A DNA stretch of 64,000 bases from Galerina marginata (taxonomy: Eukaryota; Basidiomycota; Agaricomycetes; Agaricales; Galerinaceae), in contig JAECYW010000005.1 in NCBI GenBank assembly GCA_023014335.1, positions 248,001-312,000 of the forward strand, given 5' to 3'. This document shows positions 3,008-23,288 of the stretch, one piece after another. Both the position numbers and the translations under genes were made by a program. Under the pieces are notes generated by a model. The model was not told where the DNA came from. It did not search any database and worked only from the letters and a program-made list of their open reading frames with translations. Position 1 is the stretch's first letter, and the number at the start of each line of letters is the position of its first letter.

Positions 3008-3029
3008 GGACTGATGGCGGCAGGTAGAA

Positions 3030-3190
3030 TAGCAACAATGTACCGTAGACTACGATACAGCTATTGTTTGACAATGTACCCGCAGCTATGGATGCAGCGG
3101 ACGTAGCTTATGAATATACAATGTATCAAGGAATACGAGTAAGCTAACAGCCCATACAATGTACAATACTGAGTGGATAAGCTTATGGGT
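3030..3190 (+). repeat. Left terminal inverted repeat of the KDZ element
   Basis: Starts TAGCAACAATGTACC and contains at least four ACAATGTA copies within about 120 bp, in head-to-tail orientation. It pairs with 22640-22799 in inverted orientation. Subterminal short repeats of this kind are usually transposase binding sites; that role is inferred. Confidence 0.75.
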
Positions 3191-3333
3191 GTCTCCTGGG
3201 GCAGTATAGAGACGGCATGGATTGGAATTTATCTATATACACGGATGGGCTTATGTAGTAGGCTCGGGAACTATTTACAACGGTCGCGGTGGCTTAAAGC
3301 GTAGAACGGCCGACGGAAGGTATTCGGATGCGA

Positions 3334-5247
3334 TCATTGGTCTAGCTCCTCCAGGTCTTCGGTGATGGCTTCGGAAACTTGAGTGAGTCGCTGGTGCACA
3401 ATATCTAAACTTTGCATTGCTGTTATTTCACTCCTGATTTTTGAAACCCGGGCATTGTATAGGAGGGCCCCGGCGTTCTCAAAACCCAAACTAGGGGAGA
3501 TCTCTTCGATACTCCTCAGGCATTGATGAAGTTCTTCCCAAGAAAGGGGCTACATGTGGTATCAGAACCCGAAAACGGCGAAAGGGAGGGATCAGTACTT
3601 ACAGGTTTGCCGGGGGTCGTTAAAGGATTACCCTTGGGTATAACAGCCTATAATTATTAACGTACTATTAGCCGTAGGAATAATGAAACATTAATAGACA
3701 CGTACGACTTGGTACGGCCAGGGATAACCAGCCGACTCAACGGGATGAGGATGAGGAGCCGCCCGTGGCATGCCTGGTCCTCGGATAAAATCGAGATTGG
3801 GGTCATCTTTATGGTCGGTGATTGGAAGCGTAAAGTTTGGTGGGGCTTGGGCAGTCATCCCGGGTATCGGTTGGGGGGCAGGCGGGGCAAAAACCTGGGG
3901 GATTCGAGCTCCAACGGGTTGTTGACGCAGGGCGGGCGGTGACCAGTCAATTGTAATCGGTCTATCAAATGCATTACCAGGGGACAACCCGGGCTGCGGG
4001 GGGGCATGGCCGACGGATGGCCCGGCGTCGAGCTCCTCGGGCCCTGTCGAGGATAAACTAATGGGTGTCCCACCGCGTTGTGGAATAACAGCGCGCATTT
4101 TGCCTTTCTTCTGTTTCCGCACTGCAGCGGATGACGGGTGAGGTGGCAGAACGGGGGACGGGTGAGCAGCACCGACGGTTGGTGCTTCAGGCTTTTTGTC
4201 TGTTTCTAAGTCGTCAAGGAAGGCGTTTAAAGAAAAACTACTTGCAGAAGATTCCGTCTTGTCGGGTTTCGGACCAATATTCCCAATCGGCCGTTGAAGA
4301 TCGTTTTTGGGTACAGGGAAGCCGAACGGGTCCAGTAACGAGGGTGCTGCTATCGGGTGTGCGTATGAACCCTGGAAACGGCTAGAGGACGCCATCGGCT
4401 CTGCTTGCTGTGCTAAGACACGGGCTGCATAATCAAGAGGGTCCTCCTCCGACCCACTGCCACCCGAATTTGCGTGATCAGCCGAACCGACTGCCCAGGG
4501 CTGTCCACTACACGCTGATTCCTCCAGTTTAATAGTCGGAGGGAATAGACTGCGCTGTGAACTGCTGGGTATGTTCGATGTAGCCCCGAAAAAAACTTCC
4601 CTCGGCGGCGGGACGTAGGCGGCGAGAAGGGTAGGTGGTCCCCAGGGCTTATGGCGCCAAGCTTGAGGTGACTTCTGTGCCTGTGGAGGGCCTATCTGAG
4701 ATTCCATGTAATCGAAAGGATCACTTTCAGAATCGGAATGTTCCTCAGCCGATTCCGCGGCCGGCCGATTGTTACTTGAACCACCACCTTGGGGATTGGT
4801 CGGTCCTGGTAAGGATGTCGGCTAAGTCTAATCAGCCTGGTACCAACAAAATTCATGTTTCAAGCCTTACATTGTCTTCGGGCGTAATCGGTGGCTCGTC
4901 CGATGGTTCACGGAAAAGCCCATCATTTTGCGTGATTCTTTCAATCTTTAACTCTTTGGACAAGTACTCCAAAGGATCGCTTTCATTGTCAGATTCGGAC
5001 CCGGAAATGCTCGTCGCGGGACTATGGTCGTCATTCGACTGATCCAACTCCCTGAAGCTCACCGGATTACCGGATGCAAGACCTGCATGGTTGAAGACTA
5101 AGTAGTTGACAATATAGAACAATATGGACTCACTGGTAGAATCATCCATAACGATATCAACGGCCTAGACATAGAAATGTGTTGAGTGTTAGAGAAATTT
5201 TGAAATTCTGAATTTACCTCGGTTGTTGGATTTGACATCCTATCCAT
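3334..5247 (-). CDS. Element-borne protein with repeated Ser/Asp-DP-x-(D/E)Y motifs, unknown function
   Basis: Exons from the 5' end: 5247-5218, 5164-5134, 5082-4871, 4821-3706, 3647-3603 and 3549-3334, giving 549 residues. The five introns are 44-54 nt, and all but the second fall between codons. The second intron (5133-5083) has a GTGAGT donor and is a multiple of three, so a read-through form adding a hydrophobic 17-residue insert is also possible. The protein is mostly disordered, rich in Pro, Ser and Asp. Three related acidic blocks occur in its first third: ESDNESDPLEYL, SDSESDPFDYM and GSEEDPLDYAARVL. The last exon is helical and amphipathic (SWEELHQCLRSIEEI, then MQSLDIVHQRL), likely a coiled coil. 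It is divergent from the next gene across a shared 240-bp promoter. No family recognised. The start could also be the ATG at 5238. Confidence 0.65.
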
Positions 5248-5487
5248 TAATTTTCTTATCTTGGTGAGACAACGGCTGCGATGGCTGAACAGTGAGCAAT
5301 ATGCGAATCTGTTCGGTGGAGAGGTTGATCTTGTTGATAACAATTAAAGTGACGATGACAAAGGCACGTGACCTTGTCACGGTTTGGTTGGTTTTCAAAA
5401 TGTCGCGTTCTTGCTCTCTATCTATAAACACACTCAAGTCCTCCTCACGCGCCGTTCTCCCCGAAAAATCTTCCCTTTTGCATCAAG

Positions 5488-8400
5488 ATGTCAGCCCAAC
5501 CAACTGTCACCCCCTCTGCCGTTCCACTTGCACCCGTCACCACCACCTCCGTCGACGTCGCTGGCTCTCTTGCGACGACCACTGGCTCCTCTGCTGCACC
5601 GTTGGCCCCAGCTGCAGGTGCGCCAGCCATTAATCCAGAAATGTTGCCCCCTGTTGCGCCGAGCGACGTCGCTCCCATCCTTCCTCTCGCCGAAGTCCCC
5701 CTTGTTCCTGCGACCACTTCTTTGGAACCTGCCCGTGCATCGCTCCCCCCTGGGCCTTCATCTCTCGGCGAAACTGTTGCATTGCCCGGCGCCCAACCCG
5801 CTGCGTTGGGTTCTCCATTTGTCCCCGCACCTCGCCCTCAGTTGCCCGACATTACGAAGCTTCTCGCGACGGCCGCTCGTACTAGCCCGCCGCCCCCACA
5901 CCCGACGCAGACGAAGAAGGAGAAACAAAATCTTCGGTACCGCTTGTACGACGAAAATGCTCTCGTCTCTTCTCTTGAAAAGCTGCTTGTCACGAAGGAA
6001 GAGTGGGCTGAAAAGGGAACGGATGCCGTTAGGGAAATTGTGAGTAATGAAATTTTCAACATAATTCCTCTCTCACCCCCTTTCTAGGCGAGGCTATGGA
6101 AATCGTTCCGCGTCAATCAGATAGAAGTCCCGCCCTTCCTTCGTGGACTTCAAGACCACATCCTGTTGATTCGCCAGGATGCTGAGCAATGTCGGGTAAC
6201 TTTGCAACAATATCTGGCTGACCGCGACGCCAACGGTGAAAATGATGTACCCGCCTCCGGTGAATCGACCGCCCTTCCATCGACTACGTTCCCGCCGCCC
6301 TCCGCTCCTACTGGTGGTCCGACCATCCCCCCAGTGTCGATTGAAGCTTCGGATGCGATGCCCCCGCCCCCCGCCAACGAGAGACCTCATCCAAGGCCCA
6401 CGTTCCGCAAACCGGCTGCAGGTGGAGACATGCCCCCTCCAACCCAGCCGTTAGAGTCTTCCCAAGTCCCACCACCGTCACTTTCACTCCCCGCCCCGCC
6501 ACCCGTTGCATCGGCGGGCGCTATGAATGCTACGCCCGCTGGTCGGAAGATGCAACCGACGATTATGATGGTTGATCAGGAGAAGACTGAAGTGGACGGT
6601 TCTCACGAGGACGAAAGTAATGATGAGGTACCCGACGAAGAAGAGCGACAGCGAAGACGGCTAGCAAAGGGAAAGTTCAAGGAAGAGGAGCAGGAGGCCG
6701 ACTACCCTATGGATTTGTCGAAACCGAAGCGGAGGAGCGTCAAGGGGAGGTATGTGGACGTGGAGTCCGAGGACGAAGAGGTGAAAGGGAGCGACGACGA
6801 AGAAGAGGAGGAGGAGGAGGAGGAGGACCAACTGGCGTCCGACAAAAACGACGCGGCTCCGAACACCCGACCTCGGCGCCGATCGAAGACCGCCGCCAAC
6901 AAACGACTTAAGGAAGAACCCGTGGACGACGATATGGACTACGTAGGGATGCTTTCCGACTACGCCGACGAACGCAAGGGTCCCCGTACGCGTTCAAAGA
7001 AAGGACGGAAGCCTAAGCCCGAGCCGAAATCAAAGGCTTTTGTCAAGGACACCGACGAAGAAGACGACGACGTTCCCGTCGAGGTAGACCGTTTCGCCGC
7101 CGCGGGGAAGAACGATCCGGCGTGTTCCAAGTGCGTGTCGAAGGACATCACTTGTTACTTCGTCGTCGACCAAGGGATCTTTGCCTGCAAAGGTTGTCAC
7201 AAAAGCAAGGTCAAGTGCACTGTGGCAGCACGTAAGGCCGCGAAGTTAAAGCACGACCAAGAAAAAAGGCCCCGTTGGGACGGAACCAAGTCTGTACCCC
7301 GGACGTCGACCTCCCGACCGCCTCGAGCATCAACATCCCGACCGACTCGTTCCTCGAAACGGACGACTGAGACCGAAGAACGCAAGCCGTCCCGGGTGAC
7401 GACGACGAGGTCCACGACGATGGAGAACCAGCTGAGGGCCGAAATGCAAGCGGCCGATCAGGGTAACTTCGCCACGTTCAATTTTTTTTTTTCCAAACTG
7501 ACATCGGATCTTAGGTCACCGATACAGCGCAATGGAGAAAATTATTCAGGAGCTACAGGCTGAGGTTCGTGACCTTCATCAAGAAGTTGTTGAACTTCGG
7601 GCAGCACAAGGGAGCCATGCGACCATGGCAACTCAACGGGCTTTGAACAATGCGGAATCGCAGTCATTGTTCATGAGTGACATCCAAGCACGTCTTCGAG
7701 CCGCAGGGATTCCCGAAGTCAACCCCCTCGAACACCGGGCCTACCTTGGCGCGCCTCCGGATCCAAACGCCCAATCGGCCGGCAACGTCATTCGAGGATG
7801 GCAGACGAACGAGATTCGTCCCTCCATCGCATCGACATTGTCGGTCCCACCGGCCCCTGAAGCACCCCAAGGACCCGTCCTGCCCTCGCAGGCTTCGTCG
7901 GCCCCAGCTCCTACCATTCCCCCTCCAGTGGCAGCCCCGGTTCCCGCCCTTCCCCCTCCTATTTCACCTCCAGTGGCCCACCCCCACGCACTTTCCTCGC
8001 CGTCCCAATCCGTATCGGTCCCGTCGCCTGAAAATTTGGCTGCCACTGCGCCTCCCGCTCCCGTTACCGATCCGACACCTTCCACGGGTGGTCAAACCAC
8101 TGACATTCCCTCGACGGCCGAGGTTTTACCGCCGGCCGACGACAGCTTGCCAATTGGGACGGCGGAGCTACAGGCAACGCCAACACCTGGGTTCAATGTG
8201 GATGGCAATTCCTTGCTACCATTAGGTCTCCAAACGTCAGAGGGGCTCTCGGCGGGTGTGGATAGTCAGCCACCGGCGGCCCGACCTCTAGTTGAGTACG
8301 ACGACACTCCCGCTTCCTCTCAACTCGCGCATTCCGACATCGCCGACCCCCCCACAATTGTGGCAAGCTCAGTGGGCCCCGCCGTAGCCGCTCCCGACAC

Positions 8401-8791
8401 CCCAAAGCCAGACGTTTCATCGGCCGAACAAGTTACACCCGACCGAATGACATCCCAGGAGGCAGGACACACTGCATTGTCTCCAATTCCAGAACAGTCC
8501 GAGCCGCCAGCCGATGGAGAGGGCGAAAACATGCAGGTCGACACCGCCCCAGTCATCACCACTGGAAGTCCCCGGGCCCCGTCGTCGATTGCCCTTCCAT
8601 CCGTCCCCCATGTCCCATCCTCGTCCGACACAACGTCGGCTATCAGCCCAGCACCTCCTCAACTACCTGGGTCACCGGCTTCATCAACTCCGAATGTCCC
8701 ACCGTCGTCGGGCGAAAAAAGAAAACGCGGCCGGTCAGGATCTGTAATGTCGACCCGAAGTTCGAAGAGGTTGAAGGACGGAAAGATGTAA
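5488..8791 (+). CDS. Element-borne large disordered protein with a six-cysteine cluster, unknown function
   Basis: Exons 5488-6039, 6088-7462 and 7515-8791 give 1067 residues; introns are 48 and 52 nt. Order: Ala/Pro-rich disordered N-terminus (1-150); a conserved-looking helical block around 150-235 (LEKLLVTKEEWAEKG, then ARLWKSFRVNQIEVPPF); a strongly acidic/basic tract with an E-run near residue 430; a cysteine cluster C530-C533-C540-C551-C554-C561; a short coiled coil after intron 2 (EKIIQELQAEVRDLHQEVVE); and a long Pro/Ser tail ending in a basic KRKRGRSGS-type patch. Cysteine spacing (2-6-10-2-6) matches a Zn2Cys6 binuclear cluster, but the basic residues lie in the second half. A TATA-like TCTATAAAC lies at about 5422. 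DNA binding is inferred only. Divergent from the 3334-5247 gene. Confidence 0.65.
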
Positions 8792-9012
8792 TATTGAATG
8801 GGGGGGATATCTTTGTAACAGCCATGTAAATATTTCATTAATGTTTATCCACACATTTCTTCTTGGTATGACCAGTGTGTCAAGATATTTGGAAGCATTT
8901 GGAATTATTAAAGGTATATTATTGTATGATACTAGAGAGAACTTTATAACACAAGGTAAGAGATGTATTGCCAGGTTTAGTTATTAATTTGCTGGTCTGC
9001 TATGGTAAATCT

Positions 9013-11597
9013 TTATGGTTTGTTAAACTTGTAATTTCCACGTTTAGCCGCCGGGCCAGCTTCATAGTCCGGCCGACTGACTGCCGCCCGTTTCCTTGGA
9101 CTATTACAAATCTGCACTGGTGGGTCTTGATATTGTACCTTCTTTGTCTTCTTGATATCATTTGCAGAGGTGGTTGGGTGTTGAATGATTGGCTCTTGTC
9201 TAGGTCTTTTACCATTTACATTCTTCATGAAATTCTCGTCGGTATTGAAGTGGTCTACCGTTTGACCGGCCGACTTCACCGGCCGTGGCTTGGGCCTTGG
9301 TACGAGAGGGGGCTGCGGCGGGTCCAGTTGTTGAATGTGAACCGGATCACGAACATTATTGGTGGATTTCGTTTGCAAGGGACTAGTGGGAATGCTTGCG
9401 GGCTGAGGATGAACATCCATCTCCATCATGCCGGCCGCCGGTTGATCCCATCTCAACGGCTCTGTCGGAACATTGTTTGGGGTGTACGTGGAGCTGGGGA
9501 AAACAAAAGGCTGGGTAGACAATGGCAGACCGGTGGTTTGACAAGGCTGATTTCCATTGTGCTGCTGGTAATCAGTCACATGGGGATGGGGCTTATGTGA
9601 GTCCATCGGAGCGGGTGGATTGGAGTTTCTATTCATCAACCCTTCCCCGAAATCCATGGGTGGAAAGAAAATGGGTTCATTCATGCCCCAGGCTGGGGCA
9701 TCACCAGTGTAGTCGGGACCGGCCGACGGACCCTCAATAAATGTAAAGTGTGGGTTGGTGGTAGCTTTAGAATATACTTGAAGTGCAGGATCTAAGAGCC
9801 GATTGATATCGTCGCCCCCAAGAGGGTTTGCGGCCGACGGGTCATAAGTTAGTGATGGGGGACTGGGTACCTCAGTCATTGGGCCGTCGGGTTGAGAAAC
9901 TGCATACTGGGTAATGTGGGAGTGGATGGCAAGACCAGCGGCCGACTGGTCCACGGGAAGAATTGCGGCTGACGCATCATAGGTTTGTGATGGCAGATCT
10001 CCAGTCATTGGGTCGTCGGGTTCAGATATCGCTTGCGGGTCAGTTCCAGAATCATCCAGAAAGGGTTGAGAAACCTTGGCGGTTGCTTTGCCCTTTCCCT
10101 TTCCTTTAGCCTTCCCCGATTTGCGTTGTTTGGGCGGAGCGGCGGCCGGCGCATCCAACTCCTCTTCATCGTCGGATACACAGTGGCTCATTTCCGGATA
10201 AGGCGCAAGAAGTCTAATGGGTGATTTTTTGTTACCACCTTTGATGTGGGACCAACGAAAAATTTGCGACGGCTCAACACGTGTCTGCCTGTCACGCCAG
10301 AAGTCCAATAGTTTGTCAACTTGGTCTTCAGTCATCCTCGATGGATCGACCATCCGAACATCGGCCGGCCAATATTCAGCAGCCGCCCATTTCAAGGGGT
10401 CCTCACTAACCTCCTTGAATGGGCTGCTCGCATGCTTGCGGCCGCGGGCTATGGCTGCTGATTGTTAATAACAAGGAAAGTATGGCAAAACTGATTGACT
10501 GACCATAGTTAAGATTTAGAAAGGTTCGGACCATGTCCTTCCTGTCGGACAAGGGAGGATTAACATAGTCGGCGCCGGTAATTGGCTTGAATACTGGATA
10601 GCCATATTTTCTGTCGAAGGCAGCCGCCGCGGCTGCCCGTTTTTGCAGTCGTCGGCTGGGGTCCACCGGGGCGTCGTCATCATCCTCAACACCATACATG
10701 TATTTGGCGTGCGTCCACCAGTCTTTAAACAAAGATTCAACGAGCTTGGGCTGCTTGTCCTCCAGCTTCTTTTTGGGGTCCCCCAATTCGTTATTATAGT
10801 CATAGCTGTGCAACAATATGAATATCAAAGAGACAATAGGAGAGGCACCATACATTTCCATGCCGAGGACCCCCTTCTGGTTAATATATGCACCTAGAAT
10901 GACCACCCGCATTCCACATCTCTTGAACAGAAGCTCCGCGAACTGTTGGGTCAAACGGGTACTTTCTTTCTCAACACGCCTGGTCACAGTCGGCTTTAAA
11001 AAACAACCCAATAAAGGCAGGCCGCAAAACGCACCTTTGTTGAACCTCGGCCGGAAGCCCAGCAACCTTCCAATCCAACGCCGCCTGGCGGTATTCATCA
11101 AGAACACGCGATGGAAGGCGGTCCTTTACGTTCCGGACGCCTTCTCGAAATTTTCCAATATATCCAGGATCACCGGGTGCGACGCCGGAGATTTTGCGGA
11201 CTTCCTCTTCGATTGCCTTTCGTTCCATGCATGCTATAATGCTATCCACTTTCACCTTTGGGGCAAGAAGATTGAACTTTGGTTTAACAATCCTTCTCCG
11301 ACCCGAATTGCTAAACCACTCTTTGACCTTCTGCTTTAACTGTTAGATATCTCCTTGTAAACAATCAACAATCTGTGTACTCACCGTCTTTAAAACACTT
11401 TTCTCAGGTGGTGACAAATTCGGGTAGATTTTATACAGTTGGGGCATGACAATGTTGCCAAGAAGAGCCTTACGCCCCTCTTTGTCTTCATCACGGAATT
11501 TGTCAAGATGGGGCTCGAGAACTGCGAGTTCATGGTCCTTCCAAGGTGACTTCTTATTCTTCGAAGCCTTTTTCTTCTTTGTAGGTTGTTCAGGCAT
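9013..11597 (-). CDS. Element-borne protein of unknown function, helical N-terminal half and repetitive tail
   Basis: Exons from the 5' end: 11597-11385, 11339-11035, 10979-10854, 10805-10504 and 10454-9013 (795 residues); introns are 45-55 nt and phases fit throughout. It begins with a lysine-rich stretch (KKKKASKNKKSPW), then folded-looking sequence with KQKVKEWFSNSGR, ELLFKRCGMRVVILGAY, YDYNNELGDPKKKLED and DWWTHAKYMYG, and after the last intron EDQVDKLLDFWRDRQ. From about residue 390 it is low complexity, with an acidic patch, a basic KAKGKGKGKA patch and an imperfect internal duplication. It resembles a large class of unnamed Agaricomycete proteins with a WF(S/T)N block, but I cannot name a function. 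A nested element sits about 220 bp upstream of its start codon. Confidence 0.65.
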
Positions 11598-11820
11598 GGT
11601 GGATGGACAGAAAAAAAAGGTGGTTCGTTTCCAGGAACAGGATTGTTGATTCAGAGTCAGCCACAGGGTTTGATCACCGAATGGGCGATCAGTATCACCC
11701 ATATTCCAAAAAAGGAAAAGTTACCCAAATTGGTATCCCCTCTTCGTTGCCTCAAGGAGTCTTCAACAGGGGTTGGACATCTGCTTGCCATTCCAATAAG
11801 GTTCCGGTCACTCTATCAAT

Positions 11821-12519
11821 AGGGGAATTCAAAGTTGGCGCAACGGCCGTTTCGAAACGGTCGTTTCGTTTCACTTTTTTTCTGAGTTTAAATGAGGTTG
11901 ATGCCATCAATCACCACTCGGCAAACAGGAACGGCAGCAACATGTGTTCATCAAGGTAACTAACCCCGAAATGTTGATGCGGAGCAAACCGAACATGTCT
12001 GCTCGCTGTGTCAGACGATGAGCGCAACAATACCACCTTCTGTTAAATTAATTTAAGGCGCTTTTTTGAAAACCTACTTGAACAGCTGTATGGCTTAAGT
12101 ATACACCATAATTTACTTTTAATTCGAACAATTCATTCCACAGTAAAGGGAATTATGTTTTGATATTCTCCCTGTATTTTTCGCCTTTGAGCGACCTTAA
12201 TTGGGGATTTAATGTCATAAATGAGTATTTTAAGAGATAGTTAAAATATGTACAAGTTTTTACGACAAAATTATCTGATTTGAGGGATAGACAATCCAAG
12301 TGCTGTTCTCGCCGTGTCAGACAGCGAGCGGACAGGCTTCTTCTGCGGCCTCGGCAGCTATCAGGGCTGACGTGCGCAAAGAAGTTATTATTGGAACATG
12401 TGCGGCCGCCTTGTTTGCCGGGCTAGTGATTGATGGTATCAAACTCATTCAAACTCAGAAAAAAAGTGAAATTAAACGACCGTTTCGAAACGGCCGTTGC
12501 GCCAACTTTGAATTCCCCT
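11821..12519. mobile_element. 699-bp non-autonomous element with long terminal inverted repeats
   Basis: The first ~95 bp (AGGGGAATTCAAAGTTGGCG...) recur as the reverse complement of the last ~95 bp, with weaker inverted similarity continuing inward (a CGCTGTGTCAGAC-type block near 11998 and 12315). Each arm has a near-palindrome around TTTCGAAACGG. The element is flanked by AAT on both sides (11818-11820 and 12520-12522), a possible 3-bp duplication; a TA duplication with a GGGG terminus fits equally well. No transposase is encoded. It lies inside the KDZ element, upstream of the 9013-11597 gene. Confidence 0.85.
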
Positions 12520-12522
12520 AAT

Positions 12523-14101
12523 GCATTCATTGATGTTCCAACACATGTTGTTACCCGATTGCGCCTGTCCTCCCGGGCAGAGGATGATATTCACCCACAA
12601 GTTCGTTGAAGGCAAGGATTAGATTCTTTAGGTCTATTGGCCTAAGTAGACACTTCAGAAGGACCAAATACATGACGTTACTGTATTCAGTGACATGGTA
12701 CGATCGAAAACTAAGCACAGATTTGAAATTAATCTATAAATGAAGGTAATCTAGACTTAGAGTATCAAAAGAGTAAACATGGTCACCCCAGCTGTCACCC
12801 ATAGAATTTCATACTGCAAACAACATGAATGTATTCTAATAGAGCCAATAACGTTATTTCTTCAAAAGAACATTCACCCGGAAAAATTACGGAGCTACGG
12901 GCGAATTGTAAAATTGGTCGGGCAAAGTTAGAATAGGTCCGGGCAGGTTCAAATTTTGTTCCAGAGGGCTGAATGTCTACGATTGAGTTTTCATACACAG
13001 ATCCTTCAAATATATTATGTAGCCGAAGATTTGAAGGTTGATTTGGCGTTTTTCAATTTCGTGTTTCAAAAAGTTCAAAAGCTTGACTGAATTCATGTAT
13101 GCAACTATGAAGAGTCCTCGAAAACAACTTCCTAATTGGGATGACCATTTCTGAGTATCTGAATTTTGTTTAGGACATCCTATAATGCTTCTGGCCAAGT
13201 TTGAAAAGATTTGAACAAGATTTGGATGAGCTACATGTGTTCTGGTCCGGGGGGAAGACTGTTTTGATGCTCCAGAGATTACCTGACAATTGCATTTTTT
13301 TGCCACGGTTAAAAACCTTCGGTCTATGTGTGTTATAGATAGGTCCTAGTAAGGTTTTATTCAGCCACGAATTGAGCGGATTGGACCACGGCGGCTACCA
13401 CGGATCTCAGTTTTACCCAGCCGAATAATTCCCCATTTACTACCTCAATTGGACATGCTGTCATGAGAAAATTGGCAATATTATGAGTCAGATAGCAGAC
13501 ATTCATATGTACCATACAAGGTATGATTTTACGTGGCAGTCTGAGAGGTTCTTCCATTGGCATGGCTGGCATTCCGGGAGCGGACGGATTCCGGGAGCAG
13601 TGGGACCACAGCTCCACTGTGCTTCGAAATACAAATAATAACTGTATTTGGATTCGTGACAATTGTATTGCATGTGGATGAAATGTGTGGCTCACCAGTG
13701 TCACCGGGCCTTCATTCCATTGAGAATCCTAATACAAAGAGTAATTGTATTAGGCCACAACATTAGTGTGAAAGGTTCCGGCCGAGCGTAATGCCCTCTT
13801 ATCTATCCATCATTCTTAGGCCGCCCATGTACCAGGATTGCACTCATTGCTGTCCAATTACAAGTACGGCTATAGTTGGGATTATATTAGAACAAGGGGA
13901 AGGAATTGCCTATAAAATGGCCCGACATTTCGCATTGTTTAACAGTTAAATCTCAAGGCTGTAGAAAAGGAAACTTCCCGTGGTATACAGGTCAAAAAGG
14001 TTACCACCGAGATTGACCTAGGCCAGCCATCGGCCCGTGCGCAAGGGAGTCGTCCGAACATTGGTAGGGTCGCCGATACACCCACCGATGACGCTTCGAC
14101 A
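12523..14101. other. Intergenic stretch upstream of the KDZ transposase
   Basis: Only short open frames occur, all lacking recognisable domains. A TATA-like CTATAAAAT at about 13910 and an open frame joined to the transposase (reading KKVTTEIDLGQ, 13993 onward, splice donor after 14137) suggest that transcription begins near 13940. No initiating ATG for that extension is visible. An in-frame ATA at about 13987 could be a lost start codon. Confidence 0.5.
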
Positions 14102-17100
14102 ATGTTTCAAGAGCACGGGGCTGATAACTCAAGTCAGGTACATTTAAATATCCGCCCGGCCGGTGGAAAGGTACTCGCAATCTTCGGTGGCACTGTGAAC
14201 CTTCTGACTTACCTTTGACTTTTAGACTCAGGGAGATTTCCTTCTGGAATTTATTGCCCACAAGGAAGGAATGTTGGAGGCATTGTTGGCGACGTATGGC
14301 CTGCCCCCAAGCAGCACCTGCCAGAACTGCCGCAAACGGATCGGCCGGTGGCGCTGCAAAGATTGTTACCTCCACCCTCTTCTCTGCCGCGGATGTTGTC
14401 GCAATCAGCATATCAATCTTCCGTTCCATTGTCTAGAACGTTGGACGGGCAAGTTTTTTCAGCGGGCGGCCCTGTGGGAAGTCGGGGCATGGTTATGTGT
14501 CCCACATGCCGGCGAAGTATGCGCCACGTTAAAGGACGTCCTAAATCACATGGAATCAGCTGAACAACGTCGTGATCTACTGGAACAGGAAATTGTTGCC
14601 AAATTGGCATCTTTAACAGCCATCTTCCCAATGAATCGGCCGGCCGCAAAGCGACACCCGGCCGATCATGCGCAAACCGATCCTGACTTCCAATGGCAAA
14701 AGGTCACTCAGTGGAAGCAGAATATGGCCATGGATGATCCCGATGTAATGCCAGAACTTCAAAGTGTGGAAGACTCGGACGACGGCTACTCAGACGACGG
14801 CTTGGATGACGGCCGGTACACCATTGGCCGCAGTGATGTAAGTTGATTACAAAGCTCACACCATTCTTCCGATGTTAATTTCACCACGACAGGATCCTGA
14901 AGCCATGGACACCACCGACGACGGCTCTTCTAAGGATGAGGACCAAACGGCCGGAACGGGGGTGTATTCAGATACCTTTGGAGGTCTCCCGGAAGAGACG
15001 GAGCCGACCTTGGTCGATGATCCCGGTGATGATCAGGATTGGGATGATTTTGATCCTGACGAATCCGTCGAAGCCACCGGTAATCGGCTCGGGCAAGGCA
15101 TTCCTCATCAGAACGATCTGGGCCACCCATTTATTACTATCGTCGACACCACCGGAATTCATCACCTGCCATTTTTGACTTGCAATTGTCATGGGCCTGG
15201 ACTTGTCATCCAGGAATGCTTGTTTGCTGGGCTGCTTCCATCCAGTTTCAAGGTCATACACACGGTTTTCACCACTAGGTGCCTTAATGATTTTCGGATT
15301 CTGAATTTGGAATGTAAAACATCGGCATATCAGTATTATCAATGTCTCCGACGAATCACCAACCCAGCGAATCCATCTGCGGTTCCTGATCGATATGCTG
15401 AACTTCGCCGGGCCTCAAGGGAATGGCGTCATCTCAAGAAATTGAAGCAAAATGGATTCGGTCACAAAACAGAAACTCCTTCCACAGGGGAACTCAGTCT
15501 CTTTTGTCCTGCCTGTCCTCAGCCGGGGATCAATCTCCCATCCGATTGGCAAGACTCTGAGCATCCGTATGGTTCATCCGATGTTCCGTACACTCTATGC
15601 TAACAATTTCCCCAGTGAGGTATATACCCGGACGTTTGCAATGGATGGTAATTTTACGGCCGATCACCTCAAACAAAAGCGTCCGGGCAATGATGTGTGG
15701 CTTCTGGATGGTGAGGGTATGATCACGGATAGGACACGGTATAAAGAGCAGTTAAAGACGGCCTTCGAAAAATACACGGTACATTTCATCTGGCATCCGT
15801 TCCGTTGACCTAGTTGACATTAATGCATTGCAGAAAGCACCATGTGAACGAAATTTCCAAGCTGTTGAACAGGCAAACAGAACATCAACAACCAATGATG
15901 TTACAGGGATTGCCGGTGTTGCATGCGCTCGGCATGGTTGTTTTGCCCCCGGCTCGGTTTCGGACCTCCAGAAGGGTGAAAGGCAAATGAATGTTGATTG
16001 GGCCTTTTGCGAAGCAGTGAAGAACACCAATGTTCCTCTCAATCGGCAGGTATTGCTTCTATATGACATATACTGTCAATGGTCTATCAATTTCGAGGAG
16101 CGGTTGGCCAAAAGCCCCATGTTGTCACTTCCGGATGGTGTTACTGTCGATGGCGGCATTGGATTATTTCATGTCCATGGACATTGAGAGGAATGCCTTT
16201 ATCGATATGCAACATATTTTGTACCCTCGGCGGCGGTCGTCGATGGCGAGGTCCTGGAACGATTATGGTCTGTATTGAACCTAGTGTCCAGGTCCACAAG
16301 AACCGCCACACTGGCGCATCGGGCGGAAATTCTCGATGACCATATGAATGACAATAACTGGAAGAAGTTAATTGGAATGGGTGAGAGTTTGTAGATTGTT
16401 GCGTCATTCAGCCAATGTATATTTCCAATATAGTGGCACTTATTTGTAAAAGGTACAACACAGCCCGAGAGTCGGAACAAGAAACAAGAGGTTACTGGGA
16501 GGAATTAACGGAGTCTATGTCTCCTACAATAATCGAGCAATGGAAAAGGGATATAGAGCGAGCCGAATCACAGAGGCGAAAACACCCGAAAGGCATGGAT
16601 ATTATGGGAGCCAAGGGAACAAAGTGTTTGTTTGTTTTATTCCGAAGCCAGCTCTATTCTGAAATTCTTTACCCTTCAAATTATAGTGAAAACACGGGCA
16701 GATGTTGAATTGGATTTAGTGTCAGGACCGGCCGTCAACCAAACTTCGACCGTGCGCTGGCTCATGTCGGGATTGAATCTGGAGGAGGATCAGTAAGTTA
16801 AAAACACTTGTATCTTATGTTTCCTAACAATGCTTAGGCTTCACCTCCAAATTTACATCCATCACAAAGGACGATATCTTAGCCGAGCCGAAATAGTCGA
16901 TATCGCAGGCCGCCGGGATCGTCTACGTGTTCGGATAGAAAGATTTCAAAGGGAATCACTGGAAAAACTGGACGAAAATGCAACCGGATATATTCAGGAC
17001 GAGTCGGCCGATATCGAATTCTTTGACGCCGACCAATCTGGACAACCACCCGGACAACCCCCAGTGGAAGCCTTTCGCACTGAACCCGGTGCCGCCTCTG

Positions 17101-18064
17101 AAAAGCTCAAATTGGCGTTACCCTCAAGCTTCCCACCAGAATATCTCAAGAACTTGGGCCTGGAGGGATTAATCAAGCAGGAACTTCAACTACGTTATGG
17201 GCAAGCCAATGAAGCTCTGCAGGGCATCCGATTAGCAGTGGGACAACGATCATTCCAGTACACGTCAAATATGCGGGCCAGGGGCACGGTGGTGTAGTGG
17301 CATCACCGTGTAGAGCCTGTCATTGCACACCCTCGCCAGGCGCCGGAAATGCCTACTCGATGCACGCGTTCGAACCCAGCTTACATCGACATTTTGGCTT
17401 AGTATTTTTCCGAACAAATTTATTCACCACTACCGATCACCCTTGATTATATATCTCGCCAATACTCCCACTCTAACACACCAAACACATTCAAAATCCG
17501 ACACCAGTTGCCGGTTCAAAGCAGGCGAGCGTACGTCAGTCCGGCATAACAACACAGCAACCGTACAGTCCCATTTCGGAGTCAGGCGCCGCCACCAGCT
17601 GCCCCCTGGTCTGCCGCGCCCGGATATGGTGGTCCGAAAAAATGGCCGAGGATGACGTGACAAGCAACAGCGTGAGGAAATGCACTGTGGCTGAAAGTGC
17701 CGCCATCAGTCTTAACCCGCCGCTAGGCCGGACAGCGAATGTGGGAGGTTTACGTAGAGGGGAGGTCGGAGAGCGGGATTGGGTGTGAAAGACACGTGTA
17801 TGGATGCTTGTAGTAATAGTTCCCGACAACATAATTACTAACCGTAGCATTAGGACCTAAACATATCATCGCGGAGGTTATAACTTCCTCGGGGGGCCCG
17901 GTACCTCGGGGACGTTTCCGCTTCGGGCCGCCCACGTCATGGCCCAAAGCAGCTGCTCAAGTTTGATCGCTTACGAGCCGTACAGAGAGAATTTCGCTAA
18001 GTAGATAAAAATTGCATGTACATACCCTAACATATGGCTCAGCCACAAAGGGGGAGTTTGCGGA

Positions 18065-18101
<37 letters not shown>

Positions 18102-18715
18102 GCGGGCCGGTGAAGGCAATCCCGGTTTGAAAACCCGCAGCCGAGCCGCCATTCAAGGCCTCGGCCGTACAATATCGGCCCACCGCCGAGTTTATGTCAA
18201 GTGCCGTGCAGCCATGATGGTGCTGGGCTTAAGTCACGAGGATCAACAGGTGTATCGAAAGATTGAAGATACAGACGTTCGGACCGACACAAGCATTTTG
18301 GATCCAAATCGGCCGGGTGCCGCGAAAGAGCAGTTATCTTGGATTTTTACCTTTGGACGAGCTAGGAACGAGTCTCCATCAGATTTAACAGAATGTAAGT
18401 TCTTCGGCCGATCCAATTAGAACGGTTCATAATTGATTTGCAGATTACCGTGTTCACTGGCTTCGGGCGAGGGCTCATGCACGTCGGTGGGCAGAGGAGT
18501 TGCGCCTGACCGACCATGAAATGACATGGGTCGCAAGATTTTTCAGTTATAAATATGGCGGGTGGCAGAATTGCAGGGACTTTGCGGTGAACAAAAAATC
18601 GGCCGGAGCGGTTGCCTACGCGGAACGGCAAATGCATTTTTGGTTTGTCATGGCCCAGAAAGCCGACGGTGCATTTACAAAAGTGAACCCAGATTATGCC
18701 CCCATTACCAATTAA
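14102..18715 (+). pseudogene. KDZ (Kyakuja-Dileera-Zisupton) transposase with CxC2-like cysteine cluster, disrupted
   Basis: Exons: up to 14137, 14226-14837, 14893-15566, 15616-15778, 15834-16380, 16434-16625, 16687-16792, 16838-17279, [insertion], 18109-18394 and 18444-18715. From 14226 this gives 894 codons in phase. The head has CQNCRKRIGRWRC followed by CYLHPLLCRGCCRNQH, the cysteine cluster attached to KDZ transposases. Core motifs: YTRTFAMDGNFTADHL (first catalytic Asp region), GVACARHGCFAPGSV with LQKGERQMN, LLLYDIYCQWSINF, FHVHGH, DGEVLERLWSVLNLVS, ILDDHMNDNNWKKL, and the C-terminal YRVHWLRARAHARRW. Two lesions: an in-frame TGA at 16185-16187 inside the HVHGH-x-EECLYRYA motif, and a SINE-like insertion after residue A of NMRA at 17279. 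The splice donor at 16626 (GTTTGT) is weak. The start is uncertain: 14102 is the first in-frame ATG, but the frame extends upstream. Family role: cut-and-paste transposition of the whole element. Confidence 0.9.
17280..18095 (+). mobile_element. SINE-like retroelement inserted in the transposase gene
   Basis: About 816 bp lie between two copies of AAATATGCGGGCC (17267-17279 and 18096-18108), a 10-13 bp target duplication; part of the A-run is shared with the tail. The insert begins with a tRNA-like RNA polymerase III promoter: A box TGGTGTAGTGG at 17290-17300 and B box GTTCGAACC at 17368-17376. It ends in about 32 consecutive A (18067-18098). No reverse transcriptase is encoded. The A-to-B spacing (67 nt) is longer than in a plain tRNA, and the body is long for a SINE. 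Removing one duplication copy plus the insert restores the transposase frame exactly (NMRA joined to GEGNPGLKTR). Confidence 0.88.
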
Positions 18716-18856
18716 CTTGTACCCGTTAGTGCAGAATATCTATTTATGGAAATGTTTGATAAGCCTGTCACAATGTCACCACACGTGAAAATTGTTCAAC
18801 TTTGTTTCTTACCACAAACTATTCAACTGATTCAAAGATCTTCTGCCGATCCGACA

Positions 18857-20657
18857 ATGACATCCACTGCCAATCCTGACATTCCCTTCCATCCATTCTC
18901 CCCATGGAGTCCCATATGGATTTACGAAGATAACGCAGTATTGGACTGTCAAGATCAAATATACTACATGACAAGCCGCTTGCGAGCCATTCTTGTTGAT
19001 TATTTTCTGGACACTTTGTTTCTGGAAGATACTGAAAGAGCCTGGTGGAACAGCAATTTCCTGGAAGAGGTTGTGAGTATTTTGAGACTTCTTGCAGAAT
19101 CAGATTGATCCATGATATCTGCAGGCAATTGCCAATGGGCTTCTCGGCTGGGTAACGGCCATAGGTTCCACGCCCGACGTTCCATATATCCTAAGATCAA
19201 TTTGCGTCTACTCGGTTTTTTTAGATAAAACCTCGACCATTGGCTATACTGACGACATGCAAACTCTTTTGCTGACGAATCCCCAGCATATTGAGTCTCC
19301 GTACCTTCGCCCCGCGCCGGAATATTATAACCAATGGTGGAAAGCATATACGCCCGAGGCCCGCAGCTTACAATATAAAGAACTTCGTCTGGCGCAACAA
19401 CACCATATTTCGGTCGTGCCGTTGCCCGACCCGATACCCGAGCCGACGCCCGACCCAACCACCTACATGCCCGATCATTCTCCTCATCAATCTTTCACCG
19501 AGAATTACAAGGATTTCAACCCAGGTTACGTGGATCATTTGAATGCGCCAGATACCAGCCTCGCCGCCGACGAAGATATATATGATCCTGAACGGCATTG
19601 TGACAGATGCGACATCTACCGTGCACTTGCCATGAAGGCTACAACGGCTCTTCGGGAAACATCGACCCATGTCAAAGCTATGAAGCAGTATGCCGAATGG
19701 TCGGTAGCGACATCTCAACGCATGTGCTTTGGGCTAAAATTCTTGATAATGAAACGGCGCCGTCTCAAACGAGACATTGTTGTCACCGACTTGAAAAAGT
19801 GGGGAAAAAAGGCTTACCCGGACAAGGATAATGCCTCCTGCGAACGGTTTAGCGTCACCTATCCATCGGAATCAAGCCTCGAAATCGTCGGCCAGTCTCC
19901 GGGAGATAGCCAAGGTCCACTACTGTCTGCCCCGGGCAGTGCAATGTCGGACCCTGAAGAGGAATTCATTGTCATACCTGGCGGTTACCCTTTATCTGAA
20001 CTCGAACCCGAATTCGAACACTCGCCCGACATTCGTGATTGGATTTCCAAGCTTCACGGGCCGCCGACCGGTTGTCCGTTCGACCCCCTGTCGGACAGTT
20101 TGGCTCATTCACCACCGTCGAACGAAGTGGTTGACCTGCAGTCTGCCATTTATCAACTGGCAGATACCCCTCCTCCCATCGATCACGAAGGTATACGGAT
20201 GACCACAATGATTGAAGGGTTGGACCAGGCGATCAGCACCGGAACCTCTCTTTTACAGCAGCCACCGATCCCGCCAACCCATCAACCGCCGAGTCCGTTT
20301 GCCGCATCACCAACACCCCCGACACCGGTTCCATTTCCAGCTCCCCTAGCCACCCATCCGGGGAGTCAACCCTCTGTACCCGAACGGGAATGGAACACTC
20401 GGCCGCCGATAGTAACATCACCTCATGTCATCGGACGTGATACTGCAATGGATGTTGACCAGCCGATATCGCCGGCCGGTACCTTCATATCTTCAACAGG
20501 TCTCTCCGATCGATCAGTGGGACCCAATGAAGCAGAAGCAGATGATGAGGATGAAGACGGGGAGGATGAAGACGAAAATATGGACACCTATGAACATGGA
20601 AATCATGGGTCGGATGGATCGGAGCTGAATGAAAAGGATCCAGAATGTCAAATGTAA
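18857..20657 (+). CDS. Element-borne acidic-tailed protein downstream of the transposase, unknown function
   Basis: Exons 18857-19072 and 19125-20657 (582 residues), with one 52-nt intron between codons. The N-terminal 130 residues look folded (PWSPIWIYEDNAVLDCQDQI, RAILVDYFLDTLFLED, IANGLLGWVTAIG). Next comes a Pro-rich linker of PDPIPEPTPDP type, then a CDRCDIYRALAMKA segment leading into a helical stretch (STHVKAMKQYAEWSV) and a basic MKRRRLKRDIV patch. The last 250 residues are disordered and finish in an Asp/Glu run. It starts 142 bp after the transposase stop on the same strand and ends 47 bp from the convergent TET/JBP gene. An in-frame ATG at 18746 would add 37 residues; I chose 18857 because the codons before it look like untranslated leader. 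No family recognised. Confidence 0.65.
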
Positions 20658-20704
20658 TTCATCACATTTTATGTATTATATAGCTTGTTACCCTCTAATT
20701 TAGT

Positions 20705-21932
20705 TTACTTTGGTGTGTACCATCCAGGGATAGGTAACCCAAGCCTATTGTGAACCTTTTCCCTCATATAATATGCAATACATGCTCTATCCCCATCACA
20801 ATGAGCAGAATGTGATATAACCCGTCCGGCTAAGGCTACCACTGTGCCCGGGTTATAGTGGAATCGGACACCGATTCCTGGCAACTCCAAAAACCCCTCA
20901 CGGTATGATCCTAGTGCAACAAGAATATCCATGAAGGTTTTTCCAGTATTAGTGTCTCGGTGAACTGGTGTCACTCTGTTGCTAATGACTGATAGACCAT
21001 GGAATGGCGCAGTCCATATCTGCAACACTTCCAACAAGGCATTAGGATGGTCCACTCTCTCTGGTTCCTGGCTGAGTAATAGCATTGCTTGTTTGCCAGC
21101 TTCATACAGCTCGGGCTGTACCAGGCTTAAGATTCCGCCAATTAGGGCCGACGATTCCAGCATGCCGCTCAGCCATTGGCGAGCCGGTCCCTTCAAATAA
21201 TGTGCATCCGTCTACAAATAGAATTAGATCGGCCGATGAAATTAAGACGACTTCGTACGTCGTGTCCCTGCTCAAACCATGCCGGAGCAATGCTTGCTGT
21301 CCCCGGCCGAAGCCAGCCGGTGGACTGCGAACTGTAGTATTTCGGCCCACATCTCCAATTACTGCTGCTTTGATGTACCTTTAGCTCCGGTTGCAATTCA
21401 TGTAATCTGTTCCACATTAATGTCTACAACCGGTCAGCTTATTAGCCCGTCCGAACAGCAGCCTTCGACGTACTCTTCGGAACTTCGTCAGAACACCCGG
21501 GAGATACCATGCCAGTGCCTTTCCATTGACATCAGTAACCATACGCGGATATTCATATTCTTCAACCTCGTCATTTATGGGGGGGAATTCTTCAATTAAA
21601 GATTTCTCGGTTGATTCGTTCCGGCCGGTATTCCGAGTCTTGAGCCGTGCTGCATAATCTTCTACCGCCCAAGTTGTGCTGACTAGTTCAAGTAATCAAG
21701 CTACATCCCGACAGTTCAGTCATCTACCGGGAGACTTACTTCTCTTCTCCCAGGCTGCTGCTATTACATTCACTGCAAGGTCACAGTCAACCAGGAGTTC
21801 CATTGTCCACTCATTTGGAAATGGGACATGACTCTTGTCTTTCTTAAGGATGGAAAGGAGTTTATGATTCATATACTTTGCCACTTTTTCTGTCAAAGTC
21901 AGTATGGGTAGGCAAGGACTTGATTTTGTCAT
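20705..21932 (-). CDS. TET/JBP-family 2-oxoglutarate/Fe(II) dioxygenase (5-methylcytosine oxidase type)
   Basis: Exons from the 5' end: 21932-21740, 21682-21474, 21423-21259 and 21211-20705, giving 357 residues; introns 57, 50 and 47 nt with matching phases. The double-stranded beta-helix core is in the last exon. RVTPVHRDTNTG holds the iron ligands His273 and Asp275. GFLELPGIGVRFHYNPGTVV is the family-typical strand pair. VISHSAHCDGDRACIAYYMR supplies the distal His (323 or 326) and the 2-oxoglutarate-binding Arg331. Upstream, MVTDVNGKALAWYLPG and the TGWLRPGTASIAPAWF block match the N-terminal part of fungal TET/JBP proteins. Family members oxidise 5-methylcytosine stepwise in DNA; relatives on KDZ elements are known in basidiomycetes. 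No frame break is visible and the catalytic residues are present, unlike in the neighbouring transposase. Single-domain, no CXXC zinc finger. Confidence 0.9.
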
Positions 21933-22639
21933 GGTGAAAGTCGTAGCCAAGAGTAATTTCCTTTTAGAGAATCAGAACCATTTTCAATTAATATTCTAGT
22001 TATTCCCACAATTCATTCAATGCAGTGCTGGACGGCCGACCTGTTACATCTGGTACTCCGACAATTGACTTCATATGTTGTATCTATTTTACACGGGTCG
22101 TACGATCACACCGAATGCTTGGTATAAATATTGGGCGGCCGATCTTCCGCGACCCGGCCGATGTCTACAGGATTTATTGAACTTCAATTATTTGGGTGCT
22201 TAAACAGGAATAAAGTTCATTGACTACTTACCTCGTCGATATTCTGACTAGTCAACCAATGTTTACCTACTGCTACTCAGCTTTGCCGGCTGTCCGATAT
22301 AGGCACCTGTCGGTGAACCATAAACTTGTGTCATCCCTTCTTAACTTTCATCGGTAATTATTTGGATCCCACAATTCGTTTGTTACCGGTCATTTGCACC
22401 ATCCGGATGTGAGCCCCGCCTGGCGGCCGATCGATCTACTACCGTTCCATCCGCTTATGTCTACAATTTAAATTCTTGAAGGGAAATATTTCGCTCACAT
22501 AGTTTCACTTACTCCCACATATCCAATCATAATTATTGGGGTGTAGTTCAATCATCGGGCCATCATCTTGTCAATGCCGGTTGGCGACAGCCGCTCTTGT
22601 CTTGCGCAATACCTCTCACCTTTCAGCCTTAAGTGCAAA
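21933..22639. other. Right interior of the element, no gene recognised
   Basis: There is no frame of useful length. The stretch contains several CGGCCGA-type octamers (about 22034, 22136, 22155 and 22424), like the rest of the element. It would include the promoter of the TET/JBP gene. Confidence 0.4.
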
Positions 22640-22799
22640 GACTATAAGCTTACTCGTGGCTGCAGCTACATTGTACACCTATTAGCTTATCCATTGTCTA
22701 CCTTACATTGTATATCTATAAGCTACATCCGCTGTATCCATAGCCCCCGGTACATTGTCAAGAAATAGCTGTATCGTGGTAGAGGGTACATCATTACTA
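22640..22799 (-). repeat. Right terminal inverted repeat of the KDZ element
   Basis: The reverse complement reads TAGTAATGATGTACC, then ACGATACAGCTATTTCTTGA, CAATGTACC, CTATGGATACAGCGG and GTAGCTTATAGATATACAAT, each with a counterpart in the left repeat in the same order. TACATTGT occurs at least three times. The outer limit near 22799 is set by loss of similarity. Confidence 0.75.
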
Positions 22800-23288
22800 T
22801 GGTATGTGATGGCGGGACGAAGTCGTTTTGTAGGCTATGCCAAAGCTATACCAGGGTATATTTGTAGTGATTTTCTCCTAACAGCCATGCTTCTGAGCTG
22901 GCTGTCGTCTGTTACGGATACGAACAAGATTGAACATAACTAAAAGTGATAATTCGGGAAAGCGACTTTTCCCGTGAGTTAGTCGTCCCTGTTATAACTG
23001 GGAACCGAACAAAGTTAGACTTACAGCTCCTCATATAGCTATAGTGTATCTCTGCTTCCCTTTCATTCATTTACTGGGCTATTGTGTTTGTCGGAGAGTT
23101 AAGGAGTCGTTACATGGACATTCAAGTGGGTGCTCGAATCGCGAAGAGCAACTTTCCTGCGCTCATTGAGATAAGATAAGATTATAATTATGACATCACA
23201 TGTCACATTTTTCATTTACTCGGAGTCGGTGCTCCTCCTCGTTTTCCCCTCTTTCTTCTTCGAATAGTTCTTGTGCTATCGCTGCGGA

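What the first reader, a model, noticed from the sequence alone, without database searches (positions are those of the whole stretch)
3030..22799. A ~20-kb KDZ transposon that carries a TET/JBP enzyme and four uncharacterised genes
The sequence shows long imperfect inverted repeats at 3030 and 22799 enclosing six genes on both strands. KDZ transposases next to TET/JBP genes are known in basidiomycetes, but here the unit can be delimited at both ends and includes four proteins with no assigned role. The package looks like a mobile element with its own chromatin or methylation toolkit: a possible zinc-cluster binder, an acidic protein, a motif-repeat protein and a demethylase-type enzyme.
Basis: partly seen in the sequence, partly recalled or inferred. 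Interest (0 to 1): 0.85.

Follow-up and report, generated by a model that had tools for sequence, protein, structure and literature searches.

The report
Six-gene mushroom transposon carrying a demethylase
A 20-kb stretch of a mushroom genome is a jumping gene that carries its transposase, helper genes that sister jumping genes also have, and an enzyme that may strip the DNA methylation used to silence it.

Summary
The element is window 3021-22808 (19,788 bp), 5'-CAGGTAGA...GGTATGTG-3', with 122-nt imperfect inverted repeats and a perfect 7-bp target-site duplication. A C10 copy (97.5-98.3% identical) has a different 7-bp duplication. A diverged C3 relative has the same six genes in the same order; a 5.7-kb C8 element shares only the ends. 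Ends, duplication length and CcTET-like enzyme match the published TET+ Kyakuja KDZ transposons (Kojima 2025, PMC12730594). The 'uncharacterised' genes look mostly like backbone: g3 and KDZ, with g2- and g5-like genes in fixed place and orientation, recur at 11 of 11 loci, eight without TET. g3 homology across the two groups is strong; for g2 and g5 it rests on position and weak profile similarity; g1 is positional only. TET is the variable sixth gene. The ends carry oriented iterons (ACAATGTA) that differ in the one TET-less sister delimited. This copy's transposase is broken three ways; the other five frames are open. Helper binding to the ends and TET anti-silencing are inferred. Class known; the backbone is the useful addition.

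The parts
3014..3020 (.). left copy of the 7-bp target-site duplication ATGGCGG
   Evidence: identical 7-mer at 22809-22815
3021..22808 (+). whole element, CAGGTAGA...GGTATGTG, 19,788 bp
   Evidence: identity with the C10, C3 and C8 elements stops at these bases
3029..3150 (+). left inverted-repeat arm with iterons ACAATGTA at offsets 15, 51, 98, 136 from base 3021
   Evidence: iterons
3334..5149 (-). g1: 551-aa (C10 model) protein with spaced SDP-Y acidic motifs; an upstream first exon up to about 5240 is possible
   Evidence: C10 model placed on the window by the alignment; window frames; dN/dS 0.36, p 0.06
5488..8791 (+). g2: about 1050 aa, acidic middle, six-cysteine cluster, coiled-coil-like stretch, basic end
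   Evidence: C10 model 1052 aa; weak Pfam hits Zn_ribbon_IS1595 0.012 and Zn_clus 0.062; dN/dS 0.48
9013..11597 (-). g3: likely DNA-binding protein, head-to-head with KDZ
   Evidence: C10 model 813 aa; conserved W/E/L/R...WF.N columns; C20 homologue hits GTF2I-like repeat 2.3e-5, 25.1 bits against a 27-bit cut-off
11821..12519 (.). later MITE-like insertion with 98-nt arms (94%), duplication AAT; Harbinger-like by duplication length (inference)
   Evidence: absent from C10
13954..18715 (+). g4: KDZ transposase with CxC2 cluster; broken here (143-nt 5' deletion at 13953, premature stop at 16185-16187, SINE-like insertion)
   Evidence: PF18758 6e-48 and PF18803 2.1e-16 on the C10 model; lesions
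17280..18095 (.). later SINE-like insertion with poly-A tail and 13-bp duplication, in the last part of KDZ
   Evidence: absent from C10; no tRNA gene and no Rfam match found
18857..20657 (+). g5: 582-aa protein with a CxxC and an acidic tail
   Evidence: window frames; Hebeloma homologue P0001, E 7.3e-50, 34% over 62%; dN/dS 0.67, not significant
20705..21932 (-). g6: TET/JBP dioxygenase, AG-type by its residues
   Evidence: PF12851 1.4e-21; C10 protein matches CcTet structures 8jkk and 7vpn, E 6.4e-44 and 7.4e-44; dN/dS 0.12; 27-nt in-frame deletion against C10
22679..22800 (-). right inverted-repeat arm with iterons at offsets 51, 98, 135 counted inward from 22808
   Evidence: iterons
22809..22815 (.). 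right copy of the 7-bp target-site duplication ATGGCGG

Best explanation
A TET-carrying, Kyakuja-type KDZ cut-and-paste DNA transposon. The KDZ transposase recognises the ends and inserts the unit with a 7-bp duplication. It is a TET-carrying branch of a multi-gene KDZ group with the order g2(+) g3(-) KDZ(+) g5(+) and a motif-repeat gene beyond g2. Most likely g3, perhaps with g2, binds the repeated motif in the ends and brings the transposase there, and g5 and g1 are acidic or coiled-coil partners. TET, between g5 and the right repeat, oxidises 5-methylcytosine and so helps the element escape methylation silencing. The window copy has lost its own transposase and could move now only with help from another copy. 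Shown: ends, duplications, copies, gene order, recurrence, selection on four of six genes, lesions. Inferred: every protein's role (KDZ and TET from their families), and that g2 and g5 are the same genes in TET-less elements.
For: Five of five elements read at both ends have perfect 7-bp duplications and CA..TG ends. Second copy and colinear six-gene relative. g3 at 11 of 11 loci head-to-head with KDZ, g2-like 11 of 11, g5-like 11 of 12. dN/dS below 1 with p under 0.01 for KDZ 0.15, TET 0.12, g3 0.33, g2 0.48. The gene-poor C8 element keeps only the ends and has its own duplication. Oriented iterons in both ends. CcTet homology with HxD kept. Excess of CpG-context transitions between copies, 83 of 187, as expected of methylated DNA. 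TET+ Kyakuja published with 7-bp duplications and CA..TG ends (PMC12730594).
Against: No empty site found. g1 and g5 show no significant constraint (p 0.061 and 0.45). Profile similarity of TET+ and TET-less g2 and g5 is weak (hhalign E 0.0013 and 0.0052, probabilities 18% and 7%) and absent for g1 (0.076). CpG observed/expected is 0.94, inside the 0.93-1.08 of the window flanks, so no sign of long methylation. Inverted repeats are present, whereas Laccaria Kyakuja have none; residue 331 is Thr, not Gly or Ser. No transposase tree was made. g3 has no Pfam hit above cut-off.
Confidence: 0.8

Rival explanations
1. The four extra genes are passengers of this TET+ lineage with no part in transposition.
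For: No role has been tested; g1 and g5 show no significant constraint between W and C10; g1 has no detectable homologue by profile in the TET-less C34 element.
Against: g3 is with KDZ at 11 of 11 loci including eight TET-less ones, and g2-like and g5-like genes keep place and strand there. g2 and g3 are under constraint.
Confidence: 0.15
2. TET is the ancestral gene and the eight TET-less loci have lost it; the backbone is then just the rest of a TET+ ancestor.
For: Kojima reports TET+ Kyakuja from five orders of Agaricomycotina (PMC12730594). Direction cannot be told from one genome.
Against: In the C34 element the stretch between g5 and the right repeat is about 400 bp, with no TET match anywhere near, so a loss would have had to be clean. 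This is weak evidence.
Confidence: 0.4
3. The element and its C10 copy are segmental duplications of a host gene cluster, not transposition.
For: Only two near-identical full copies were found.
Against: Identity stops at the CA..TG ends in different flanks, with a different perfect 7-bp duplication each time.
Confidence: 0.01

Closest known systems
TET+ Kyakuja KDZ transposons of Agaricomycotina (Kojima 2025, PMC12730594; parts 1-5 of 7 and figure legends read)
   Same: KDZ transposase, 7-bp duplication, 5'-CA..TG-3' ends, CcTET-like TET with HxD and Asp337
   Different: 122-nt imperfect inverted repeats here, none in the Laccaria families; Thr at position 331 in the window and C10; the text read describes no g1, g2, g3 or g5 in Kyakuja; its supplementary tables were not available
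KDZ-TET neighbourhoods of basidiomycetes (Iyer et al. 2014; paper not held, recalled only)
   Same: KDZ and TET linked, with additional proteins, one with a divergent HMG domain as recalled; g3 may be that protein
   Different: I recall no delimited unit with duplications; could not be checked
KDZ1-KDZ3 of Cryptococcus neoformans (PMC12810828; passages read)
   Same: KDZ elements of about 9-11 kb with inverted repeats, seen to insert in the laboratory
   Different: 8-bp (KDZ1) or 4-8-bp duplications, CxC1 rather than CxC2, no TET mentioned in the passages
KDZ transposons of Pleurotus ostreatus (PMC7641404; passages read)
   Same: intact KDZ all preceded by a CxC2 region, as here
   Different: no unit with ends and helper genes described in the passages
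En/Spm TnpA and Vandal VANC of plants (TnpA recalled; VANC mentioned in PMC12730594)
   Same: element-coded protein and, as recalled, motifs repeated in the element; anti-silencing
   Different: unrelated proteins; binding and demethylation untested here

Membership tests
KDZ superfamily | KDZ transposase domain over the curated cut-off | tested here: met
   PF18758 163.8 bits against 26.6, plus CxC2, on the C10 model; window exons 147.7 bits
Kyakuja (Kojima 2025) | 7-bp target-site duplication | tested here: met
   5 of 5 elements read at both ends
Kyakuja (Kojima 2025) | 5'-CA..TG-3' ends | tested here: met
Kyakuja (Kojima 2025) | no terminal inverted repeats (stated for the two Laccaria families) | tested here: not met
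   122 nt at 78%, 383 nt at 98% in C34; not shown to be a defining trait of the whole lineage
Kyakuja (Kojima 2025) | transposase groups with Kyakuja in a tree | not tested
   no reference transposases were at hand
AG-type TET/JBP | CcTET-like domain with HxD and Asp337 | tested here: met
   read from the alignment to 8jkk; numbering from PMC12730594
AG-type TET/JBP | Gly or Ser at position 331 | tested here: not met
   Thr in the C10 protein, Ser in C3
AG-type TET/JBP | oxidises 5mC | not testable with these tools
   needs biochemistry
VANC/TnpA-like self-targeted anti-silencing | motif repeated in the element and bound by an element-coded protein | tested here: inconclusive
   iterons present; binding not testable

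The most novel reading that the evidence does not exclude
This KDZ group is a multi-subunit transposition system: a dedicated protein (g3, with g2) reads a family-specific motif in the ends, and in the TET+ branch the same protein steers TET to the element's own ends, giving self-targeted demethylation in the manner of plant VANC or TnpA but by a TET enzyme.
Probability: 0.22. Interest if true: 0.8.

Novelty: new member of a known kind. Interest (0 to 1): 0.5.

Why it matters
TET genes spread in mushrooms with transposons, but how the units are built and whether TET acts on its own element is open. Here two near-identical TET+ copies, a diverged TET+ relative, eight TET-less sisters and a gene-poor element lie in one genome, with the ends of five of them, their duplications and candidate binding motifs defined. 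That makes it testable which genes are needed to move and whether TET changes methylation of its own element.

Tried and rejected
Empty site: a 26-nt joined-flank pattern with up to 3 mismatches found 0. Partners of two single ends were sought in the fetched stretches only and not found: C6:1089208 (two CAGGTAG sites, neither with the matching 7-mer) and C3:752322 (no GGTATGTG in 10 kb). Protein database: g3 alone, none of 4899 candidates; g3 as a four-row alignment, none of 7447; g5, one of 7997 scored, so breadth outside this genome rests on one Hebeloma protein. Homeodomain-like and HMG-like readings of g3 are by eye; Pfam gave neither. Structure: g5 model useless (mean pLDDT 33), g3 exon model 59 with no fold match at E 0.001 or better. 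No Rfam match in 3000-23000 and no tRNA gene at 16800-18500. CpG depletion: not seen. My first reading of the nested MITE as Tc1/mariner-like (note) was wrong: its duplication is AAT.

Not in print, as far as searched: (open-licence full text; listings seen) showed no paper on this backbone by title or start of abstract. Iyer 2014 and Kojima's supplement could not be read, so priority is unsettled.
Full report
The element. The window is contig C39:248001-312000 of a 69.3-Mb genome in 43 contigs. The inverted repeats are real: 3029-3150 and 22679-22800, 122 nt, 78% complementary. Identity with copies elsewhere runs 8 bp further out on both sides and stops, so the element is 3021-22808, 19,788 bp, CAGGTAGA...GGTATGTG, between two copies of ATGGCGG.

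Copies. C10 (903312-921704, 18,393 bp) is 97.5-98.3% identical over four blocks, duplication ACCCGCT. A diverged relative on C3 (1319347-1341989, 22.6 kb) has GTCGGTT. A 5.7-kb element on C8 shares the ends (88-89%) and has CAGGTGA; against the window its interior gave only short stretches of about 25 bits or less. Two single ends, on C3 and C6, were not paired in the stretches fetched. No empty site was found.

The genes. From the left: g1 (-), g2 (+), g3 (-), KDZ (+), g5 (+), TET (-). Translated comparison with C3 gives colinear matches for all six: up to 84% identity for KDZ and 71% for TET, 37-58% for the main stretches of g2, g3 and g5, and short weak ones for g1. The C10 KDZ model has PF18758 (6e-48) and CxC2 (2.1e-16). 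The window TET exon has PF12851 (1.4e-21), and the C10 TET matches the solved CcTet at about 7e-44, with HxD and the Asp337 position kept; position 331 is Thr here, Ser in C3. g3 shares a W..E..L..R...K....WF.N pattern in 4 of 4 aligned members, and 1 of 4 members hits the GTF2I-like repeat at 2.3e-5, under cut-off. g2 has a six-cysteine cluster with sub-cut-off Pfam hits. g5 has a CxxC, an acidic tail and one database homologue, in Hebeloma cylindrosporum.

State of this copy. Against C10 the window KDZ gene has lost 143 nt at its 5' end, carries a premature stop and is split by a SINE-like insertion; a MITE-like piece sits between g3 and KDZ. The C10 model shows none of these. The other five frames are open, and indels inside them are multiples of three. 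Over 18,216 aligned sites 281 differ (1.54%). dN/dS: KDZ 0.15, TET 0.12, g3 0.33, g2 0.48 (p below 0.01 each), g1 0.36 (p 0.061), g5 0.67 (p 0.45).

The backbone. The genome gave 135 KDZ matches, merged by me to 98 loci; such counts are lower bounds by the tool's own words. The TET+ g3 query found 11 loci, and the TET-less one found the same 11. TET+ g2 and g5 queries found only the three TET+ loci. TET-less C34 queries found g2-like genes at eight loci and g5-like genes at nine, and not the TET+ ones. Taken together: 11 of 11 g3 lie 5' of KDZ on the opposite strand (2.4-8.0 kb), 11 of 11 g2 or g2-like further 5' on the same strand (5.0-10.8 kb), and 11 of 12 g5 or g5-like 3' on the same strand (1.6-2.5 kb). 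The twelfth (C5:2035325-2041304) is 26.5 kb from a KDZ. At most 2.8% of the genome lies within 10 kb of a KDZ locus. Direct profile comparison of TET+ with TET-less: g3 7e-23, g2 0.0013, g5 0.0052, g1 0.076; the 12 mismatched pairs gave 0.085-0.57. So g3 is shared for certain, g2 and g5 probably, g1 by place only: a motif-repeat gene sits beyond g2 in C34 and C20.

The delimited TET-less sister, C34:139990-159118, has 383-bp inverted repeats (98%), CACATGGG...CCCATGTG ends and the duplication GCCTTTA. Its g5 ends about 400 bp from the repeat, where TET lies in the window element. The ends of the other seven TET-less loci were not read.

TET. Of 18 Tet_JBP matches three (75.8-77.8 bits) are the TET+ copies, 3.6-4.4 kb from KDZ. 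The other 15 score 23.9-34 bits; five of them pass the cut-off with neighbouring pieces. Of the 15, 13 are 62 kb or more from a KDZ and two lie on a contig without one.

Ends and methylation. ACAATGTA lies at offsets 15, 51, 98, 136 of the left end and 51, 98, 135 of the right, all in one orientation, against 0.05 per kb inside. Shuffles reached the observed maximum 8-mer count in 5 and 25 of 2000. The arms are homologous, so they are not independent. C34 has other iterated motifs (CGATCGGA, AAGTAGCA). CpG-context transitions are 83 of 187 between W and C10 (p 4e-8 against 0.26, 2e-5 against 0.30, both chosen by me; the CpG share of C+G is 0.234). CpG observed/expected is 0.94, against 0.93-1.08 for window flanks. 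So CpG sites mutate faster, but the element is not depleted.

Comparison. Kojima 2025 describes TET+ Kyakuja with 7-bp duplications and CA..TG ends. This element fits except for its inverted repeats and residue 331, and its place in a transposase tree is untested. Iyer 2014 is recalled only. Cryptococcus KDZ elements insert in the laboratory (PMC12810828, passages), which supports mobility of the class. Marasmius KDZ elements also have inverted repeats (PMC8290104, passages).

Verdict. A real, well-delimited member of a known class.

Noticed in passing
G000:C23:2791967-2870203: Five Tet_JBP-like matches about 19.46 kb apart on one strand, with no KDZ within 860 kb: perhaps a tandem array of a 19.5-kb unit with a second kind of TET-like gene.
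   Followed up: no
G000:C34:152915-158472: A 1.1-kb inverted pair (93.6%) spanning 5.6 kb inside the C34 element; its size fits the difference from the 13.5-kb C23 copies, so probably a nested insertion.
   Followed up: partly
G000:C5:2035325-2041304: A g5-like remnant followed by sequence resembling a C34-type end (C5:2041326-2042393), with no KDZ match within 26 kb.
   Followed up: no
window 3005-3020: The insertion lies 13 bp upstream of a putative start codon (by eye) of a gene with an MBOAT_2 acyltransferase domain (1678-2706, PF13813 3e-16); it may change that gene's expression.
   Followed up: no
window 33230-35299: A long ankyrin-repeat frame built of 99-bp units, over 16 in a row.
   Followed up: no
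window 41273-42724: A NACHT/NPHP3_N protein (1.1e-25) near repeated blocks at 28-30, 36-39 and 44-47 kb.
   Followed up: no
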